NCBI GenBank assembly: GCA_030432195.1
Contig: JAUIHE010000004.1
Location: 1-54,658 of the forward strand
DNA from: Alphaproteobacteria bacterium
GTDB lineage: Bacteria; Pseudomonadota; Alphaproteobacteria; UBA7985; JAUIBT01
DNA length: 54,658 nucleotides
Direction: 5' to 3'
The notes beneath the pieces are model-generated. The model was given only the letters and a program-made list of their open reading frames with translations. It did not search any database and was not told the DNA's origin. The position numbers were made by a program, and so were the translations under genes. Shown here in pieces: positions 390 to 26,687 of the stretch (positions are counted from its first letter, which is position 1; each line of letters opens with the position of its first letter).

Positions 390-1262
390 ATGAGCAAGAA
401 GCATCCCATCATTTCAGTCACTGGTTCGTCCGGGGCGGGGACAACAACCGTCAAATCTACGTTCGACTACATCTTTCACCGCGAAGGCGTGAAGGCCGTG
501 TCAATCGAGGGCGACGCTTTCCACCGCTTTGACCGCGCCGCCATGCGCGCCGAGCTGGAGCGCCGCAAAGCCAACGGCGACCACACCTTTAGCCACTTTT
601 CCTATGAGGCCAATCTTCTGGACAAGCTGGAGGACGTGTTTCGTACTTTCGGCGAGACCGGTAGCGGCGAGACGCGCCACTACGTTCACGACGATACCGA
701 GGCCGAGCGTTGGAAGACCGAGCCCGGCACTTTTACCAATTGGCAGGCCTTTGACGACGGCGCGGACCTGTTATTCTATGAAGGCCTGCACGGCGCGGTG
801 GTCAACCATGAGGTCAATCTGGCGCAATTCGCGGATTTGAAAATTGGCGTCGTGCCGGTCGTGAACTTGGAATGGATCCAAAAGATCCATCGCGACAAGG
901 CCCATCGCGGCTATTCGACCGAGGCCGTTACCGATGTCATCCTGCGCCGCATGCACGCCTATGTGCATTGCATCTGCCCGCAGTTTATTGAGACCGACAT
1001 CAACTTTCAGCGGGTGCCGGTGGTCGATACCTCTGATCCCTTTATCGCGCGCTGGATCCCCACCGCCGATGAGAGCCTGGTCGTCATCCGCTTCAAAGAT
1101 CCGCGCGGCATCGATTTTCCCTACCTCACCTCGATGATTCAAAATTCTTGGATGAGCCGCGCCAACTCGATCGTGGTGCCGGGCGGCAAAATGGACCTGG
1201 CTATGCAGTTGATCCTAACCCCCATGGTCCGCCGCTTGGTGAGCGACAGCAAGCGCGCCTAG
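390..1262 (+). CDS. cbbP: Phosphoribulokinase
   Basis: Phosphoribulokinase converts ribulose-5-phosphate and ATP to RuBP, the substrate of RuBisCO. The 290-residue product has the size of the proteobacterial (class I) enzyme. A P-loop GSSGAGTTT lies at residues 12-20, and there is an EGDAFHR segment around residue 40. The LLFYEGLHGAVVN motif in the middle is the conserved acidic region of the family. The start is supported by an AAAGGAA ribosome binding site about 7 bases upstream of the ATG. It lies between the fructose-bisphosphatase fragment and transketolase, the usual order in cbb operons. Bacterial enzymes of this type are often controlled by NADH; nothing in the sequence tests that here. 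Confidence 0.95.
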   Translation: MSKKHPIISVTGSSGAGTTTVKSTFDYIFHREGVKAVSIEGDAFHRFDRAAMRAELERRKANGDHTFSHFSYEANLLDKLEDVFRTFGETGSGETRHYVHDDTEAERWKTEPGTFTNWQAFDDGADLLFYEGLHGAVVNHEVNLAQFADLKIGVVPVVNLEWIQKIHRDKAHRGYSTEAVTDVILRRMHAYVHCICPQFIETDINFQRVPVVDTSDPFIARWIPTADESLVVIRFKDPRGIDFPYLTSMIQNSWMSRANSIVVPGGKMDLAMQLILTPMVRRLVSDSKRA

Positions 1263-1332
1263 CACACCAGACACGCCAACTCCCCCCAAAACGACCAAAT
1301 AGCCGCCCGCCGCCCAGTTTCAGGAGGCCCCC

Positions 1333-3354
1333 ATGACCCAAGCCAACCTCAATCTTGCCAACGAAACCGTGATGGCCAACGCCATTCGCGCCCTGACCAT
1401 GGATGCGGTGCAGGCGGCCAATTCCGGCCACCCCGGCGCGCCGATGGGTTTGGCCGACGTTGCCGCTGTGCTGTTCAACCGCTTCATCAAGCTGGATCCA
1501 AGCCAGGACACCTGGCCCGACCGCGACCGCTTTGTCCTGTCAGCAGGTCACGGCTCTATGCTGGTCTACGCGGTCAACCACCTGCTGGGCTATGACGATA
1601 TGGACATGGACCAGCTGCGCAATTTTCGCCAATTGGGCTATCGCACGGCGGGCCACCCCGAATTCGGCCACGCCAAGGGGATCGAGACCACCACCGGCCC
1701 GCTGGGCCAGGGCCTTTCAACCGCCGTGGGCATGGCGCTTGCCGAGCGGATGGCCGCTGCGCGCTATGGCGCCGAGTTGGTCGATCACTTCACCTATGTG
1801 TTGGCCGGTGACGGCTGCTTGATGGAGGGTATCAGCCAAGAAGCCATTGACCTAGCCGGGCATCTGGGTTTGGGCCGCTTGATTGTCATTTGGGACGACA
1901 ATGCCATCACCATTGACGGTGCGACGGATCTCTCGACCTCTATCGACCAGGCCCAGCGCTTTGCCGCCAGTGGCTGGCAGGTGCAAGACATCGACGGCCA
2001 CGATCCCGAGGCCATCGCCGAGGCCCTTATCAAAGCGCGCAGCGACGACCAACGCCCCAGCCTGATCGCAGCCAAGACGCTGATCGGTTGCGGGGCGCCC
2101 AACAAACAGGGCAGCAAAGCCACCCACGGCGCGCCCTTGGGAGATGATGAGATCGCCGCAGCGCGCGAAAACCTCGACTGGCCGCACGCCCCTTTCGTCA
2201 TTCCGCAAACCGTCTATGACGCCTGGCACGCCGCCGCCGCACGCGGGCAAGCCGCTCGCCTCGCCTGGCAGACCCGCCTTGAGCAAAGCGACCAGCGCTC
2301 AGCTTTTGAGGCCGCGAACGCCGAACCCGATACCCAAGCTCTCGACGACGCCATGCAACGCTATAAGGCTCAGCTTATGGCCGATGCGCCCAAGGTGGCG
2401 ACCCGCAAGGCCAGCGAAATGGCGCTGGAGATCATCAACACCACGCTGCCCAACACGGTCGGCGGCTCGGCGGACTTGACCGGCTCTAACAACACCCGCA
2501 GTTCGGGCCAGTTCAGCGTCTCCAAGGGGGCCTTTGCTGGCGACTACCTGCACTATGGCATTCGCGAGCACGCCATGGGCGCCGTCATGAACGGCCTGGC
2601 TCTGCACGGCGGCTTTCGCCCCTATGGCGGCACCTTTTTGGCCTTTGCGGATTACTGTCGCCCGGCCATGCGCTTGTCGGCTCTGATGCAGGTGCCGGTG
2701 GTCTATGTCATGACCCACGATTCGATCGGGCTGGGCGAAGATGGCCCCACCCATCAGCCGGTTGAGCACCTGGCCAGCCTGCGCGCCATGCCGAACATGC
2801 GGGTCTTCCGGCCAGCCGATGCCGTCGAGACCGCCGAAGCCTGGCACTTGGCCATGAGCGAGACCCGCTTTCCGCCTGTGTTGGCCTTGTCGCGCCAGGC
2901 CCTGCCCAATTTGCGGGGGCTGTTGGCCGACTACCAGCTCGCCGACAACTTGAGCGCAAGGGGCGCCTACGTCCTTCGGGAAGCTGAAGGCCCGCGCGAT
3001 ATCACCTTGATTGCAACCGGCTCTGAGCTGGAAATCGCTCAAGCCGCCGCCGACGCCTTGCAGGCCGAGGGCGTCAAAGTCGCCTTAGTCTCTGCCCCCT
3101 GTTTTGAGCTGTTCGAGGAGCAAGACGCGGACTACCGCGCCAGCGTCCTGGGACACGCGCCGCGGGTCGGCGTCGAGGCCGCGGTTCGCCAAGGCTGGGG
3201 CGGTCTGTTGACCACGACCGACGCCTTCATTGGCATGGCGGGCTTTGGTGCTTCTGCGCCCGCGCCCCAGCTCTATCAGCATTTTGGCATCACCCCAGAG
3301 GCGGTCGCCACGGCAGCGCGGCGCCTTATGGCAGAAGGAAAGAAAGAAGCATGA
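1333..3354 (+). CDS. cbbT: Transketolase
   Basis: Transketolase moves two-carbon ketol units between sugar phosphates in the regenerative half of the Calvin cycle, using thiamine diphosphate. The product has 673 residues, a normal full length. Visible landmarks are the N-terminal [10 protein letters not shown] and [16 protein letters not shown], the cofactor-binding GDGCLMEG...WDDN segment, and [15 protein letters not shown] in the pyrimidine domain. The ATG is preceded by AGGAGG. The stop codon overlaps the start of gap as ATGA (3351-3354), so the two genes are probably translationally coupled. It belongs to the cbb operon and not to a housekeeping tkt locus, judging by its neighbours. Confidence 0.96.
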
Positions 3355-4385
3355 CTGTAAGGGTAGGTATCAACGGTTTCGGACGCATCGGACGCTGCAC
3401 CTTGAGCGCCATCGTCGAGCAAGGCCGCAACGATATCCAAGTTGTCAAAATCAACGCCACCGGACCGCTGGAGACCAATGCGCACCTGCTGAAGTACGAT
3501 TCGGTCCATGGCCGTTTCAGCCAGGAAATCCGCCTTGATGGCCCGACCTTGGACGTAGGCCAAGGCCCCATCCAAATGTTCTCGACCTACCAGCCTAATA
3601 CTCTGGATTGGGAAGGTGTGGATGTGGTGCTGGAATGCTCGGGCCAATTCAATTCATACGAAGGCTCTAAGGTCCACTTGGAGCGCGGTGCCAAGCGTGT
3701 GCTGGTCTCGGCGCCCGCCAAAAACGCCGACAAGACGCTGGTCTACGGCGTCAATCACGCACGTTTGGAGGCCAGAGATCGCATTATCTCCAACGGGTCT
3801 TGCACCACAAATTGCCTCGCGCCCTTGGCCAAGGTCTTGAACGAGGCTGTCGGCATTGAGGCGGGTGTCATGACCACGGTCCACTCTTACACTGGCGACC
3901 AGCCGACCTTGGATCGCCGCCACGATGACCTCTATCGCGCCCGCGCCGCCGCTGTTAGCCTCATCCCCACATCAACCGGCGCCGCCAAGGCCATCGGCGA
4001 AGTGCTGCCCGAGTTGGCCGGCAAGCTGAACGGGTCGGCTATTCGCGTCCCCACCCCCAATGTCTCAGCGGTGGATTTGACCTTCACCGCTAGCAAAGAT
4101 GTCAGCGTCGCCGACATCAACGCGATTATGGCCGAAGCCGCAACCACCACGATGCGCGGCATCATCTCCTATGAAACCGAGCCCAAGGTCTCGGTGGACT
4201 ACAACCACGACACCCATTCCTGCAACTTCGCCAGCGATCAAACCAAGGTCATGGGCGCCCGCTTGGTGCGCGTCCTGGCTTGGTACGACAATGAATGGGG
4301 CTTTTCCTGCCGAATGGCCGACAACGCGGTTCACATTGGCCGCATGGCTTGGCAGAGCGCCGCCAGTTCCGCGCGCTTGCAGTAA
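3351..4385 (+). CDS. gap: Glyceraldehyde-3-phosphate dehydrogenase, probable NADP(H) type
   Basis: This type I GAPDH (344 aa) carries out the reductive step of the Calvin cycle. [10 protein letters not shown] forms the Rossmann start, and the catalytic Cys is C151 in [17 protein letters not shown] lies near the C-terminus. Two features differ from NAD-specific glycolytic enzymes. The Asp that normally follows IN at the end of the second strand is Ala36 (KINATG). The Leu-Pro pair of the S-loop is replaced by Arg189-Arg190 (TLDRRHDDL). In the family these positions discriminate NAD from NADP, and the Arg pair could bind the 2'-phosphate, so NADPH use is inferred. It is coupled to cbbT by an ATGA overlap. 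Confidence 0.93.
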
Positions 4386-4411
4386 CTTTTCCGTTTCAAG
4401 GAGGCCCGACA

Positions 4412-7034
<2,623 letters not shown>

Positions 7035-7058
7035 GGCGCAAGAATAGGAGATCACAAC

Positions 7059-7448
7059 ATGCGTATTACTCAAGGATGTTTTTCCTTCCTGCCCGACCTG
7101 GACGATGTCCAAATCGCCAAGCAGGTTGAATATTGCCTGGAAAACGGCTGGGCGATCGGCATCGAGCACACCGACGATCCGCACCCGCGCAACACCTACT
7201 GGGAAATGTGGGGCAACCCCATGTTTGACCTGCGCGACGCCAAGGGCGTGATGATGGAGCTGGACGACTGCCGCAAACTGCACGGCGATGACTATATCCG
7301 CCTTTGCGCCTTTGAAGATGAACGCGGTATCGAGTCGGTAAAAATGAGCTTCATCGTCAACCGTCCGGCCAAGGAACCCCGCATCACCATGACCCGCAGC
7401 GATTATGTCGATCGCGCGCAAAAGTACGCTTGGCAGGTCAACCGCTAG
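7059..7448 (+). CDS. cbbS: RuBisCO small subunit
   Basis: This is the RuBisCO small subunit, 129 residues, forming the S8 caps of the L8S8 holoenzyme. It begins MRITQGCFSFLPDL, and GWAIGIEHTDDPHPRNTYWEMWG is the typical hairpin region in the first half. The extra C-terminal segment (about residues 105-129, ending AQKYAWQVNR) fits the C-terminal hairpin extension of red-type small subunits. AATAGGAG precedes the ATG. It lies 24 bases after cbbL, so equal co-expression is likely. The 142 bases between cbbS and cbbX contain no gene, only short imperfect copies of GGAAAGACC. Confidence 0.97.
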   Translation: MRITQGCFSFLPDLDDVQIAKQVEYCLENGWAIGIEHTDDPHPRNTYWEMWGNPMFDLRDAKGVMMELDDCRKLHGDDYIRLCAFEDERGIESVKMSFIVNRPAKEPRITMTRSDYVDRAQKYAWQVNR

Positions 7449-7590
7449 GCCTGGCCTGAACTTTCTGGCTTGATCTATCTGGCTTGGGCCGTCCGGTTTG
7501 GGTCTTCGGGTCTGGCCCCCCGCATGTCGTCACCTCGACCAGGAAAGACCAGTCCACCCGGAAAGACCCGTCAACCAGGAAGGAGCGGCC

Positions 7591-8604
7591 ATGAGCCTAG
7601 ATTTGGAGCAAAGCGTGACCAACGACACGACCAAAAGCGACGAGACTACCGGCGACGAGATAAACAGCCCAGTGCAAGCCGATGAGGCGACCAGCACCGC
7701 GCAAGCCGTTGATCTTGCCAGCGAATACGAAAGCTCGGGCGTCGCAGACGTTCTGGCCGAACTGGACCGCGACTTGATCGGCCTGGCTCCGGTCAAGCAG
7801 CGCATCCGCGAAACCGCGGCGCTGTTGCTGGTCGATCGTGCCCGCCGCGCGCTGGGGCTCAGCCACCAAACGCCGACCCTGCACATGTCCTTTTCCGGCA
7901 ACCCCGGCACCGGCAAGACCACCGTTGCCCTGAAAATGGCGGACCTATTGTATCGCCTGGGTTATGTGCGCAAGGGCCATTTGGTCAGCGTGACCCGCGA
8001 TGATCTGGTCGGCCAATACATCGGCCACACCGCGCCCAAGACCAAAGAGGTGTTGAAAAAGGCCATGGGCGGCGTGCTGTTCATCGACGAGGCCTACTAT
8101 CTCTATAAGCCCGACAATGAGCGCGACTACGGCCAAGAAGCTATCGAGATCTTGTTGCAAGTCATGGAAAACAACCGCGATGACTTGGTGGTCATCATGG
8201 CGGGCTATGCCGACAAGATGGACATGTTTTTCCGCGCCAATCCCGGTTTTCGTTCGCGCATTGCCCACCATATCGAGTTCCCTGACTATAGCGGTGAGGA
8301 GCTGATGGGTATTTCTGAGCGCATGCTAGCTGAACAAAACTACCTGCTGGACGAGGGCGCCAAACAGGCATTGAGCGCCTATATTGAATTGCGTCGTCGC
8401 CAACCCCACTTCGCCAATGCGCGCTCGATCCGCAACGCCCTAGATCGCGCCCGCCTGCGCCAAGCCAATCGCCTCTTCAGCCAGGCCAAAGGGCCATTGA
8501 GCGGCCAGGCGCTGAGCACGATCAGCGCAGCCGACATAAGGGCTAGCCGTGTCTTCCAAGGCGGGCTAGATGTTGACCGCAACCAGTCTGGCGATGGCCA
8601 GTAA
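7591..8604 (+). CDS. cbbX: Red-type RuBisCO activase CbbX (AAA+)
   Basis: CbbX is the AAA+ motor that removes inhibitory sugar phosphates from red-type RuBisCO by pulling on the large-subunit C-terminus; RuBP allosterically stimulates family members. Walker A GNPGTGKT is at residues 103-110 and Walker [10 protein letters not shown] around 162-170. Further on are IMAGY, the NPGFRSRI arginine-finger region and an [12 protein letters not shown] sensor-2 segment. The protein has 337 residues from ATG 7591, which follows AGGAGCGG. The N-terminal 50 residues are Thr, Ser and acid-rich and look disordered, longer than in many CbbX proteins. A longer upstream frame has no ribosome binding site. Confidence 0.95.
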
Positions 8605-8631
8605 ACGCGCAGCCGCTTTTAGGAAAAGACC

Positions 8632-9321
8632 ATGACCTTTGATCGTTCTATCAAGATCGCCCCTTCCATATTGTCCGCCGATTTCGCCAACTTTGGCCAA
8701 GAAATCCAGGCCATCGAAGCGCAGGGCTGTGACTGGGTGCACGTCGATGTCATGGACGGCCATTTTGTGCCGAACATCACCTTTGGTCCTCAGCTCTGCG
8801 CGGCTATTCGCCCGCATATCAAGACCGTGATGGATGTGCATTTGATGATCACGCCGGTTGATCCTTATATCCAGGCTTTCGCCGACGCGGGCGCGGATAT
8901 CTTGACCGCCCACCTGGAGGCGGGCCCTCACATCCACCGCACGCTGCAAGCTATTCGCGGAGCTGGCTGCAAGGCGGGCCTCGCGCTCAACCCCAGCACG
9001 GGCATCGAAGATGTCGATTACCTGCTGGACATGGTGGATTTGATCTGCGTGATGACCGTCAACCCGGGGTTTGGCGGCCAGAAGTTCATTCACAGCCAGA
9101 TCGACAAGGTGCGCAAGCTGCGCGCGCTGATCGGTGACCGGCCCATCCATATTGAAATCGACGGCGGCATCACGCCCGAGACCGCGCCTTTGATGGCGGC
9201 AGCGGGCGCCGATGTCTTGGTGGCAGGATCTGGCGTCTTTAAGGGCGGCTCGGTCAGCAATCCAGGGCCCTACGGTGACAACATCCGTGCCATTCGCGCG
9301 GCCGGTGAAGCCGCGCGCTAG
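8632..9321 (+). CDS. rpe: Ribulose-phosphate 3-epimerase
   Basis: This epimerase interconverts ribulose-5-phosphate and xylulose-5-phosphate, feeding phosphoribulokinase; it is CbbE in cbb operons. It is a 229-residue TIM barrel with IAPSILSADFANFG, VDVMDGHFVPNITFG, the phosphate-binding MTVNPGFGGQKF and EIDGGI, all diagnostic of the family and containing its metal-binding His and Asp residues. It sits 27 bases after cbbX, and its stop codon is only 3 bases from the following phosphatase, indicating a continuous transcript. Confidence 0.96.
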   Translation: MTFDRSIKIAPSILSADFANFGQEIQAIEAQGCDWVHVDVMDGHFVPNITFGPQLCAAIRPHIKTVMDVHLMITPVDPYIQAFADAGADILTAHLEAGPHIHRTLQAIRGAGCKAGLALNPSTGIEDVDYLLDMVDLICVMTVNPGFGGQKFIHSQIDKVRKLRALIGDRPIHIEIDGGITPETAPLMAAAGADVLVAGSGVFKGGSVSNPGPYGDNIRAIRAAGEAAR

Positions 9322-24372: not shown

Positions 24373-24566
24373 TTCGGCGCCGTCTGAGCCGCAAAACCCG
24401 CTCACAGTTTGTTACAAAGCCGCCTGTTTCATCACGACCCCTCACAAGGATGCGTGAGGCGGGCGCTTGCCCTGCCTTTGCCCCATTTCAGCATCACCTG
24501 ACTTGCAATCGAAACGCGCCCTGCTATCAGGTCGCGCCCTTCCCAAATCAAGTGAAAGGATGCACT

Positions 24567-25178
24567 ATGTCAAACAAGCTCACTCGCCGCGCCGCGCTCT
24601 TGGGCCTCGCGGGCCTTGCCGGCACGACCGGTCTGGGGCTGATGTGGCGGTCAAGCAACAGCTTTGCGTCCAACAACAAGACCGCTTCCCCTCAGGCTTC
24701 TATGGGCAGTGCCCCCAAATCAGGAGACCCTATGACCCACACCAACGTTAGCGCTGGCCTCTCCCCGCTGATCGACCCCAATGCCTATGAGATTGAGCTG
24801 ACCGAAGCGCAGTGGCGCGAACTGCTGGAGCCGAACGCCTTCAAGGTGTTGCGCAAGCATGCGACCGAGCGCTCCTTCACCTCACCGCTGAACGATGAAA
24901 AGCGCAAAGGCACCTTCCATTGCGCAGGCTGTGATTTGCCGGTCTACTCAAGCGAGGCAAAATTCGACAGCGGTACGGGTTGGCCCAGCTTCTGGCAATC
25001 CTTGCCCGATGCGGTGCGTACGAAAAAGGACCGCTCCTTGTTTATGGTGCGCACAGAAGTGCATTGCCGTCGCTGTAAGGGCCACTTTGGGCACATCTTC
25101 AACGATGGCCCCCAGCCAACCGGCATGCGTCATTGCATCAACGGCCTGGCCCTGAGCTTCAAGACCGATGCCGCTTAA
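24567..25178 (+). CDS. msrB: Peptide-methionine (R)-S-oxide reductase with Tat-type signal
   Basis: MsrB repairs methionine-R-sulfoxide in proteins. The 203-residue product has an N-terminal extension of about 65 residues before the MsrB domain, starting MSNKLTRRAALLGLAGLAG. This is a twin-arginine motif (TRRAALL) with a hydrophobic stretch, so export to the periplasm by Tat is likely. The MsrB domain has zinc ligands in CAGC and CRRC, DSGTGWPSFW, and the catalytic Cys in MRHCINGLAL. The usual RYC reads RHC here, and a second (resolving) Cys is not evident. ATG 24567 follows GAAAGGA; a longer upstream frame lacks a ribosome binding site. It precedes the CRISPR locus. Confidence 0.92.
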   Translation: MSNKLTRRAALLGLAGLAGTTGLGLMWRSSNSFASNNKTASPQASMGSAPKSGDPMTHTNVSAGLSPLIDPNAYEIELTEAQWRELLEPNAFKVLRKHATERSFTSPLNDEKRKGTFHCAGCDLPVYSSEAKFDSGTGWPSFWQSLPDAVRTKKDRSLFMVRTEVHCRRCKGHFGHIFNDGPQPTGMRHCINGLALSFKTDAA

Positions 25179-25605
25179 GTGTAGGGCGAGGCACTAGCGC
25201 GAGGCACAAGGCAGGGCGTGTAGCGGGTTCGCGTGGCGTTCTAGAGCGTCGGGCGCTGACCTTGCAACAGCCCTTCCGCTCTAGCTGGCTGATTTCTAAC
25301 GCAAGTCCATGCTCATTCGTAGTGCCACTCATTCGCGGCATGCTCTAGAGCGCGTTTCGTTGAATTGCAATCACAGGGCGCGCCCACACTATTTAATTGT
25401 GCTGCAAATACTCCTTGCCGATCTTTGGCACAATCGATGGCGGTTGCTCGGGCTTTGCTTTAGGATAGGCAGAGCGGCGCCGCGCGCGGGATCGTTCGCG
25501 CGAAAAAAACGAGGTAAAACCGGCCAGAATCACGGCAAAATGCATGGATTTTTTACAAGAAAACCGGATATTCTTTTGCAAAAACAAAAGCGTATCCGGT
25601 ATCTA
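25179..25605. other. Intergenic region between msrB and the CRISPR array
   Basis: No gene is seen in this 427-base stretch. It contains two TCTAGAGCG boxes (about 25241 and 25345) and one GCTCTAGC. The second box sits in a sequence (CTCTAGAGCGCGTTTCGTTG followed by AATTGCAATCA) that recalls the short dispersed CTAGAGC elements seen between genes in many alphaproteobacteria. A direct repeat GCGAGGCAC lies just after msrB. The part nearest the array is AT-rich and ends with the hairpin at 25563-25600. No anti-repeat that could mark a tracrRNA gene was found here. Confidence 0.5.
25563..25600 (-). terminator. Hairpin abutting the CRISPR array, terminator-like on the minus strand
   Basis: ACCGGATA (25563-25570) pairs with TATCCGGT (25593-25600). 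Inside that, CTTTTG (25573-25578) pairs with CAAAAG (25585-25590) around a 6-base loop, with one 2x2 mismatch between the stems. Read on the minus strand the hairpin is followed by TTTCTTGT. It would therefore stop a transcript coming out of the array. The distance to the first repeat is 5 bases. Confidence 0.55.
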
Positions 25606-26170
25606 AGTGTAGCAGTTCAGAATTTGTGGTCCAGCCGCAACTTGCTTGCTCTGCAGCTTGTACGTCTTCTTAGTGTAGCAGTTCAGAATTTGTGGTCCAG
25701 CCGCAACCTTCGGCGGTGGCGGCGGTGCGCCAGGCCAAAGTGTAGCAGTTCAGAATTTGTGGTCCAGCCGCAACGCTCGCAATGATGCGATCGATCTCGG
25801 CCAGAGTGTAGCAGTTCAGAATTTGTGGTCCAGCCGCAACAGATCGCCAGTCAAGAGCGCATCGCTCTCAGTGTAGCAGTTCAGAATTTGTGGTCCAGCC
25901 GCAACGGCCAGGACTACCAGACCGCCTATCGCATTAGTGTAGCAGTTCAGAATTTGTGGTCCAGCCGCAACGAAGCTGATGATAGCGGCGACGCCAATTT
26001 GCAGTGTAGCAGTTCAGAATTTGTGGTCCAGCCGCAACAATTGCTTCGCGCCTTCGCTGCGATGGCGGAGTGTAGCAGTTCAGAATTTGTGGTCCAGCCG
26101 CAACTATTGAAGAGCTCTATGGCGACCTGCGCACAGTGTAGCAGTTCAGAATTTGTGGTCCAGCCGCAAC
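25606..26170 (-). CRISPR. CRISPR array, type II-C-like repeat, nine repeats and eight spacers, no adjacent cas genes
   Basis: Nine identical 36-base repeats start at 25606, 25672, 25739, 25805, 25870, 25936, 26003, 26069 and 26135. The eight spacers between them are 29 to 31 bases and all different. On the plus strand the repeat begins AGTGTAGCAG and ends CAGCCGCAAC. Its reverse complement begins GTTGCGGCTGG and ends CTGCTACACT, the pattern of type II-C (Cas9) repeats in alphaproteobacteria, which also have 36-base repeats and 30-base spacers. The end TGCTACACT resembles the extended -10 box carried by some type II-C repeats, so minus-strand transcription is inferred. No cas9, cas1 or cas2 and no tracrRNA anti-repeat is present in the window. 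Lack of repeat decay suggests a recently active array. Confidence 0.95.
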
Positions 26171-26264
26171 AAAAGCTACTATGGCGCGCGCCCGGCGCAA
26201 AACCTTGCCGCAAAATCAGGGCGCATGACCCCAACGCAATCAAATGCAATCAAAGGAGAAATCC

Positions 26265-26687
26265 ATGAAAGTCGCGCCCTACCTGGTCTTCAATGGCAAT
26301 TGCGAGGAGGCTTTCAAAGCCTACGTGGACATCTTGGGTGCAGAGCTCATCGTGCTGATGCTTTTTTCCGACATGCCGCAGCCGTCGGGCGACGAGCCGG
26401 CCTTTGAGGTGCCCGAGGACCACAAGCAAAGGGTCATGCACGCCCAACTGAAGCTAGGCGACAGCGTTATTATGGCCTCGGACAATGCCCCGGGCCGTCC
26501 GCCGGTCGTCATTGATGGTATTTCGGTGCAGACCGCTTGGGATACGCCCGAAGAGGGGCGACGTGTCTTTGAGGCCCTGGCCGAAGGCGGCGAGATCACC
26601 ATGCCCTACGAGGCCACTTTTTGGGCGCGCGGCTTTGGCACCTGTCGCGATCGCTTTGGCGTACCTTGGATGGTCAACTGCGACTAG
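26265..26687 (+). CDS. VOC-family (PhnB-like glyoxalase/bleomycin-resistance fold) protein
   Basis: This 140-residue protein resembles the PhnB/YjdN group of the vicinal-oxygen-chelate superfamily: it starts KVAPYLVFNGNCEEAFKAYVDILGAE and ends DRFGVPWMVNCD, both typical. SVIMASDNAPG lies in the middle. The function of this group is unknown; members are not phosphonate enzymes in spite of the name. ATG 26265 follows AAAGGAGAAATCC, a strong ribosome binding site; an in-frame ATG at 26244 does not have one. The gene begins 94 bases after the last CRISPR repeat. It is unlikely to be CRISPR-related. Confidence 0.85.
   Translation: MKVAPYLVFNGNCEEAFKAYVDILGAELIVLMLFSDMPQPSGDEPAFEVPEDHKQRVMHAQLKLGDSVIMASDNAPGRPPVVIDGISVQTAWDTPEEGRRVFEALAEGGEITMPYEATFWARGFGTCRDRFGVPWMVNCD

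What the first reader, a model, noticed from the sequence alone, without database searches (positions are those of the whole stretch)
25606..26170. CRISPR array with type II-C-like repeats but no cas genes nearby
Seen: nine identical 36-base repeats and eight distinct spacers of 29-31 bases between msrB and a VOC gene. Known: 36-base repeats beginning GTTGCGGCTGG (minus strand) with 30-base spacers are typical of Cas9 type II-C loci in alphaproteobacteria. Inference: either cas9-cas1-cas2 and the tracrRNA are elsewhere on the chromosome, or this is a cas-less remnant. Identical repeats argue against long decay. The eight spacers are a usable record of past phage exposure.
Basis: partly seen in the sequence, partly recalled or inferred. 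Interest (0 to 1): 0.75.

Follow-up and report, generated by a model that had tools for sequence, protein, structure and literature searches.

The report
Type II-C CRISPR array, cas genes missing
This is a genuine bacterial immune-memory array of the Cas9 (type II-C) kind, one of at least two in its genome, with some spacers matching phage genes; the Cas9 machinery itself is not in the 86%-complete assembly and is absent from two nearly complete sister genomes.

Summary
A second array with the same repeat (8 copies) lies on contig C105 and runs off the contig end. No cas9, cas1 or tracrRNA anti-repeat was found in the 86%-complete genome or in two ~99%-complete congeners. One of those (G001) keeps a single spacer-less repeat plus leader at the orthologous transketolase locus. 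Rhodobacteraceae loci with near-identical repeats show array / hairpin leader / cas2-cas1-cas9 / tracrRNA. Their covarying hairpin always sits on the crRNA-3' side, so the acquisition end of the window array is its left end (hairpin 25563-25600), the crRNA strand is minus, and the newest spacer is 25642-25671. Spacers are real memory: W5 matches an SU10-type portal gene in a G001 prophage and, separately, the same motif in an IMG/VR phage; C5 and C3 of the second array match a G001 prophage region and, probably, a roseophage capsid gene. Family assignment: about 0.95. Whether Cas9 acts in trans from an unassembled locus (about 55%) or was recently lost (about 40%) is unresolved. New member of a known kind.

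The parts
25606..26170 (-). CRISPR array: nine identical 36-nt repeats (crRNA sense GTTGCGGCTGGACCACAAATTCTGAACTGCTACACT) and eight spacers
25563..25600 (-). Leader hairpin at the acquisition (crRNA-3') end, followed by a short T-run; likely array terminator
   Evidence: folds at -21.7 kcal/mol, z -7.8; homologous hairpin with compensatory changes in 11 other loci; 86% identical in G001 over the leader query
25541..25605 (-). Leader region (conserved core), acquisition end of the array
   Evidence: about 90% identity to G001 from 25550 into the first repeat; same position as the leaders of cas-linked relatives
25642..25671 (-). Spacer W8, leader-proximal, inferred newest
   Evidence: position relative to the leader hairpin; polarity rule from PMC12080349
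25841..25869 (-). Spacer W5: matches SU10-type phage portal genes; its complement encodes IASQERIAL
26105..26134 (-). Spacer W1, leader-distal, inferred oldest
26171..26264 (.). Crna-5' side flank of the array and upstream region of the VOC gene; no conserved element found
24450..25178 (+). msrB-like gene (SelR domain), left neighbour, not part of the system
   Evidence: Pfam SelR 9e-47
26265..26687 (+). Glyoxalase/VOC-type gene, right neighbour, not part of the system
   Evidence: Pfam PF06983 5e-10 and PF00903 4e-9

Best explanation
A cas-distal array of a type II-C CRISPR-Cas9 system. Inferred working: Cas1-Cas2 of a II-C operon added spacers next to the hairpin leader at the left end (25605/25606). 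RNA is made on the minus strand, probably from a weak extended -10 (TGnTACACT) at the 3' end of each repeat, runs right to left and stops at the hairpin 25563-25600. tracrRNA pairs with the repeat part, RNase III trims, and Cas9 uses the spacer to cut phage DNA. The same machinery would serve this array and the second array on contig C105. Shown here: the array, its twin, the leader hairpin and its conservation, the II-C gene set beside near-identical repeats in relatives, and phage matches of spacers. Inferred: transcription, processing, interference, and that cas9-cas1-cas2-tracrRNA lies in the unassembled ~14% of the genome.
For: Same repeat in two arrays. Near-identical repeats next to cas2-cas1-cas9 and an anti-repeat in Rhodobacteraceae-type loci. 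Covarying leader hairpin shared with those loci. Spacers match phage genes in a congener's prophages and in phage records, and no spacer matches its own genome outside the arrays. 16 of 17 repeats are identical, so there is little decay. The assembly is 86% complete and breaks inside the C105 array, with no second leader copy found, so the DNA next to that array is missing.
Against: No cas9, cas1 or anti-repeat in the held assembly. Two ~99%-complete congeners also lack them, and G001 has no cas beside the orthologous repeat-leader. No expression data exist here.
Confidence: 0.55

Rival explanations
1. Recently orphaned II-C array: the lineage lost cas9-cas1-cas2-tracrRNA a short time ago. Both arrays persist as silent memory, on the way to the state seen in G001 (one repeat plus leader, no spacers) and G002 (nothing).
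For: No cas9, cas1 or anti-repeat in G000, G001 or G002. G001 shows the relic state at the orthologous C105 locus. G002 has no repeat with up to 3 mismatches.
Against: Repeats are undecayed and one spacer is 29/30 identical to a congener's prophage region, so acquisition was recent. The assembly is incomplete exactly where an operon could lie.
Confidence: 0.4
2. The array is served by a Cas effector of another type that happens to use this repeat.
For: None found; only Cas9 and Cas1 families were searched for in the own genome, so other effectors were not excluded directly.
Against: No Cas1 of any type by the general Pfam model. Repeat and leader match II-C loci.
Confidence: 0.03
3. Not a CRISPR array but a tandem or dispersed repeat.
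For: The region also holds dispersed repeats.
Against: Eight unique spacers, phage matches, and cas-linked homologous repeats elsewhere.
Confidence: 0.01

Closest known systems
Type II-C CRISPR-Cas9 loci of Rhodobacteraceae (e.g. Sedimentitalea arenosa L067, Loktanella sp. L064, Aliiroseovarius sp. L066, Sinisalibacter aestuarii L058)
   Same: Near-identical 36-nt repeat, ~30-nt spacers, covarying hairpin leader on the crRNA-3' side, mutated first repeat in several arrays including C105
   Different: They carry cas2-cas1-cas9 and, where seen, an anti-repeat next to the array; here none is in the assembly
Single repeat plus leader in congener G001 (L035 7871-8130)
   Same: 35/36 repeat identity and homologous leader hairpin
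   Different: No spacers; it sits at the orthologue of the C105 locus, not at the window locus
Orphan CRISPR2 of Enterococcus faecalis (type II-A; PMC4580645)
   Same: A cas-less array kept at a fixed locus while cas operons are present only in some strains
   Different: Type II-A and Firmicutes; there the cas-bearing strains are known, here none is

Membership tests
CRISPR array | Identical direct repeats with unique spacers of constant length | tested here: met
CRISPR array | Spacers derived from mobile elements | tested here: met
   W5, C5 and probably C3 match phage or prophage DNA; the other 12 spacers have no convincing match
Type II-C CRISPR-Cas | 36-nt repeat of the II-C family with about 30-nt spacers | tested here: met
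   near-identical repeats are linked to cas9-cas1-cas2 in relatives
Type II-C CRISPR-Cas | cas9 in the genome | tested here: inconclusive
   not found in an 86%-complete assembly; the same model finds Cas9 in 9 of 60 relatives
Type II-C CRISPR-Cas | cas1 and cas2 in the genome, no csn2 or cas4 | tested here: inconclusive
   cas1 not found; cas2, csn2 and cas4 were not searched for
Type II-C CRISPR-Cas | tracrRNA with an anti-repeat to this repeat | tested here: inconclusive
   only the arrays themselves match the anti-repeat pattern; assembly incomplete
Type II-C CRISPR-Cas | Acquisition at the last (3') repeat, with the first repeat mutated | tested here: inconclusive
   leader position and the mutated first repeat in C105 and relatives fit, but the first repeat of the window array is intact and no strain comparison of spacers was possible
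Type II-C CRISPR-Cas | crRNAs made from the array and used by Cas9 | not testable with these tools
   needs small-RNA sequencing or an interference assay

The most novel reading that the evidence does not exclude
The ~38-nt covarying hairpin at the acquisition end is a conserved structured element of alphaproteobacterial II-C arrays with a joint role (array terminator and Cas1-Cas2 docking site), and it outlives the cas genes: in this genus leader hairpin plus repeat persists at two different loci without any cas operon in cis. No Rfam family matched it.
Probability: 0.3. Interest if true: 0.5.

Novelty: new member of a known kind. Interest (0 to 1): 0.33.

Why it matters
It gives phage-linked spacers for a poorly sampled alphaproteobacterial genus, and three related genomes caught at different stages: full arrays, one repeat plus leader, nothing. 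That makes the loss of a II-C system readable. The leader hairpin offers a testable marker for the acquisition end of II-C arrays, whose orientation is a known problem for prediction tools (PMC12638026).

Tried and rejected
TIGR01865 hit on C38 (18 bits): an ordinary HNH endonuclease ORF, not Cas9. Spacer W7 hits in many genomes, plasmids and viruses: GC-rich low-complexity sequence, rejected. IMG/VR L102 hit of the W5 seed: no match to the rest of the spacer within 7 mismatches, rejected. Seeds of W8, W6, C5 and C7: no IMG/VR hit. The repeat itself is absent from IMG/VR, so no phage-borne array was found. Portal-protein search in IMG/VR confirmed no relative. PAM: 3' flanks are GAGCGATG and GGGCAATG (C5 targets), TGGCCATC and TCTCGCGC (W5 targets) and GACATCGT (C3 target, read by hand); too few and too distant for a call. 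The idea that dispersed element A moved the array was dropped: A has at least 40 copies in the genome, so chance proximity is not negligible. The simple promoter and terminator scan found nothing, so the terminator reading rests on the fold and the T-run.

Full report
OBSERVATION. Nine identical 36-nt repeats occupy 25606-26170 with eight unique 29-31-nt spacers between msrB and a VOC-family gene. The pattern occurs 17 times in the whole genome: nine here, and eight on contig C105 (11168-11666), where the 5'-terminal copy has one changed base (G1 to C) and the contig ends 2 nt after the last repeat. The assembly is 3.14 Mb in 224 contigs, 86% complete. A break inside an array is a usual result of two arrays sharing repeats, so whatever follows the C105 array is not in hand; no second leader copy exists elsewhere in the assembly.

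WHAT IT BELONGS TO. A relaxed repeat pattern found 11 records in the GTDB-species genome collection, mostly labelled Rhodobacteraceae. Read in crRNA sense, nearly all spacings are 65-67 nt, and where the flank after the last repeat is held it is a short junction (often NGAT) and a hairpin; in most loci the end of a convergent cas2 appears to follow, judged by the shared sequence and confirmed by profile only in L067. In L067 the order is array, hairpin, cas2 (2302-2646), cas1 (2643-3554), cas9 (3614-6841), anti-repeat (6925-6948), with clear Cas2, Cas1 type II/NMENI and Cas9 profiles. The same anti-repeat core is in L061, L064, L066 and L067. This is a II-C layout.

POLARITY. The window has a matching hairpin at 25563-25600 on the minus strand, directly left of the array (-21.7 kcal/mol, z -7.8). 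Over 12 loci 85.8% of cells pair, and 34 cells show double changes that keep the pair, against 13.5 in shuffles (0 of 500 as high); slid registers score lower. One caution: the structure was derived from this same alignment and the sequences are related, so both controls lean towards it; the strong folds of single sequences support it separately. Published work states that II-C arrays gain spacers at the last repeat and that the extra repeat at the other end gathers mutations (PMC12080349; PMC12638026). The mutated first repeats in C105 and in L059, L060, L062, L063 and L064 fit that rule; the first repeat of the window array is intact. So the left end is most likely the acquisition end, and W8 (25642-25671) the newest spacer. 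In the window and G001 a T-run follows the stem, so ending the array transcript is a likely role (inference).

SPACERS. No spacer matches its own genome outside the arrays at the threshold used. W5 (25841-25869) matches, at 25/29 with 13 perfect 3' bases, the portal gene of a G001 prophage whose neighbours are TerS, TerL, scaffold, SU10_MCP and SU10_adaptor. The complement of W5 reads IASQERIAL, identical to the G001 portal peptide. A 20-nt seed scan of IMG/VR (one position left as C or T to admit the G001 variant) found one further portal gene (L101; 30% amino-acid identity to the G001 portal) hit at the homologous motif IASQERVAM. Two portal genes hit at one motif is very unlikely by chance. 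C5 on C105 matches G001 C12 29/30 next to a YqaJ/RecE-like exonuclease gene, and two further G001 contig ends 24/24, one of them carrying a CI-like repressor. C3 matches the major capsid gene of Roseobacter phage CRP-406 26/30; the E-value is only 2, but the match is in frame (GTEVGVARAR against GTEVGIARAR, read by hand), so I count it as probable. The other 12 spacers have no convincing match.

CAS STATUS. Own genome: no Cas9 (TIGR01865), no Cas1 (PF01867, TIGR03639), no separate anti-repeat. Congeners G001 and G002, both about 99% complete: no Cas9, no type II Cas1, no separate anti-repeat. Control strength: PF01867 rang over its cut-off in 9 of 14 control genomes and TIGR01865 in 9 of 60 relatives, so these searches work; TIGR03639 rang over its cut-off in none of its controls, so it has no positive control here. 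cas2 was not searched for on its own. G001 holds one repeat (TTTGCGG..., 1 mismatch) plus the homologous leader hairpin at the orthologue of the C105 transketolase locus, with no spacers. The simplest reading is that the C105-type locus predates the split of G000 and G001 and that G001 lost its spacers and cas. The window locus has no counterpart: msrB and the VOC gene are not adjacent in G001 or G002, and similarity stops at or near the gene ends.

INFERENCE. In relatives cas9, cas1 and the anti-repeat lie together in about 5 kb, so their joint absence is one event, with about a 14% prior chance of being an assembly gap, and more because the assembly broke inside an array. Undecayed repeats and fresh phage matches argue for recent activity; two cas-less congeners argue for loss. 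I put in-trans function from an unassembled locus at about 0.55 and recent loss at about 0.40. These are judgements, not computed values. The closest known precedent for a cas-less array kept at a fixed locus while cas operons are patchy is CRISPR2 of Enterococcus faecalis (PMC4580645).

NOVELTY. The array is a new member of a known kind. The acquisition-end hairpin has no Rfam match, and I found no paper describing it, but the literature held here is partial and I searched it only lightly, so I do not claim it is new.

Noticed in passing
window 25241-25348: Dispersed element A (~108 bp, ends near TCTAGAGC), at least 40 copies in this genome and at least 36 in G001, few in G002; partial tandem copies on C180. 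One copy also lies near the G001 repeat-leader relic.
   Followed up: partly
window 25348-25466: Dispersed element B (~117 bp), more than 25 copies in G002, only a few in this genome.
   Followed up: partly
L035 7871-8130 (G001 C85:56040-56130): A solitary repeat with leader hairpin and no spacers in a ~99%-complete genome without cas9, between a transketolase gene and its likely terminator.
   Followed up: yes
L090 5171-12275 (G001 C68): SU10-type podovirus head module in a congener: TerS, TerL, portal, scaffold, capsid, adaptor.
   Followed up: partly
window 25179-26264: The msrB / VOC junction is a rearrangement breakpoint relative to both congeners; similarity stops at or near the gene ends.
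   Followed up: partly
window 390-9321: Calvin-cycle gene cluster, judged by reading the ORF translations only: phosphoribulokinase, transketolase, GAPDH, aldolase, RuBisCO large and small subunits, CbbX, ribulose-phosphate epimerase.
   Followed up: no
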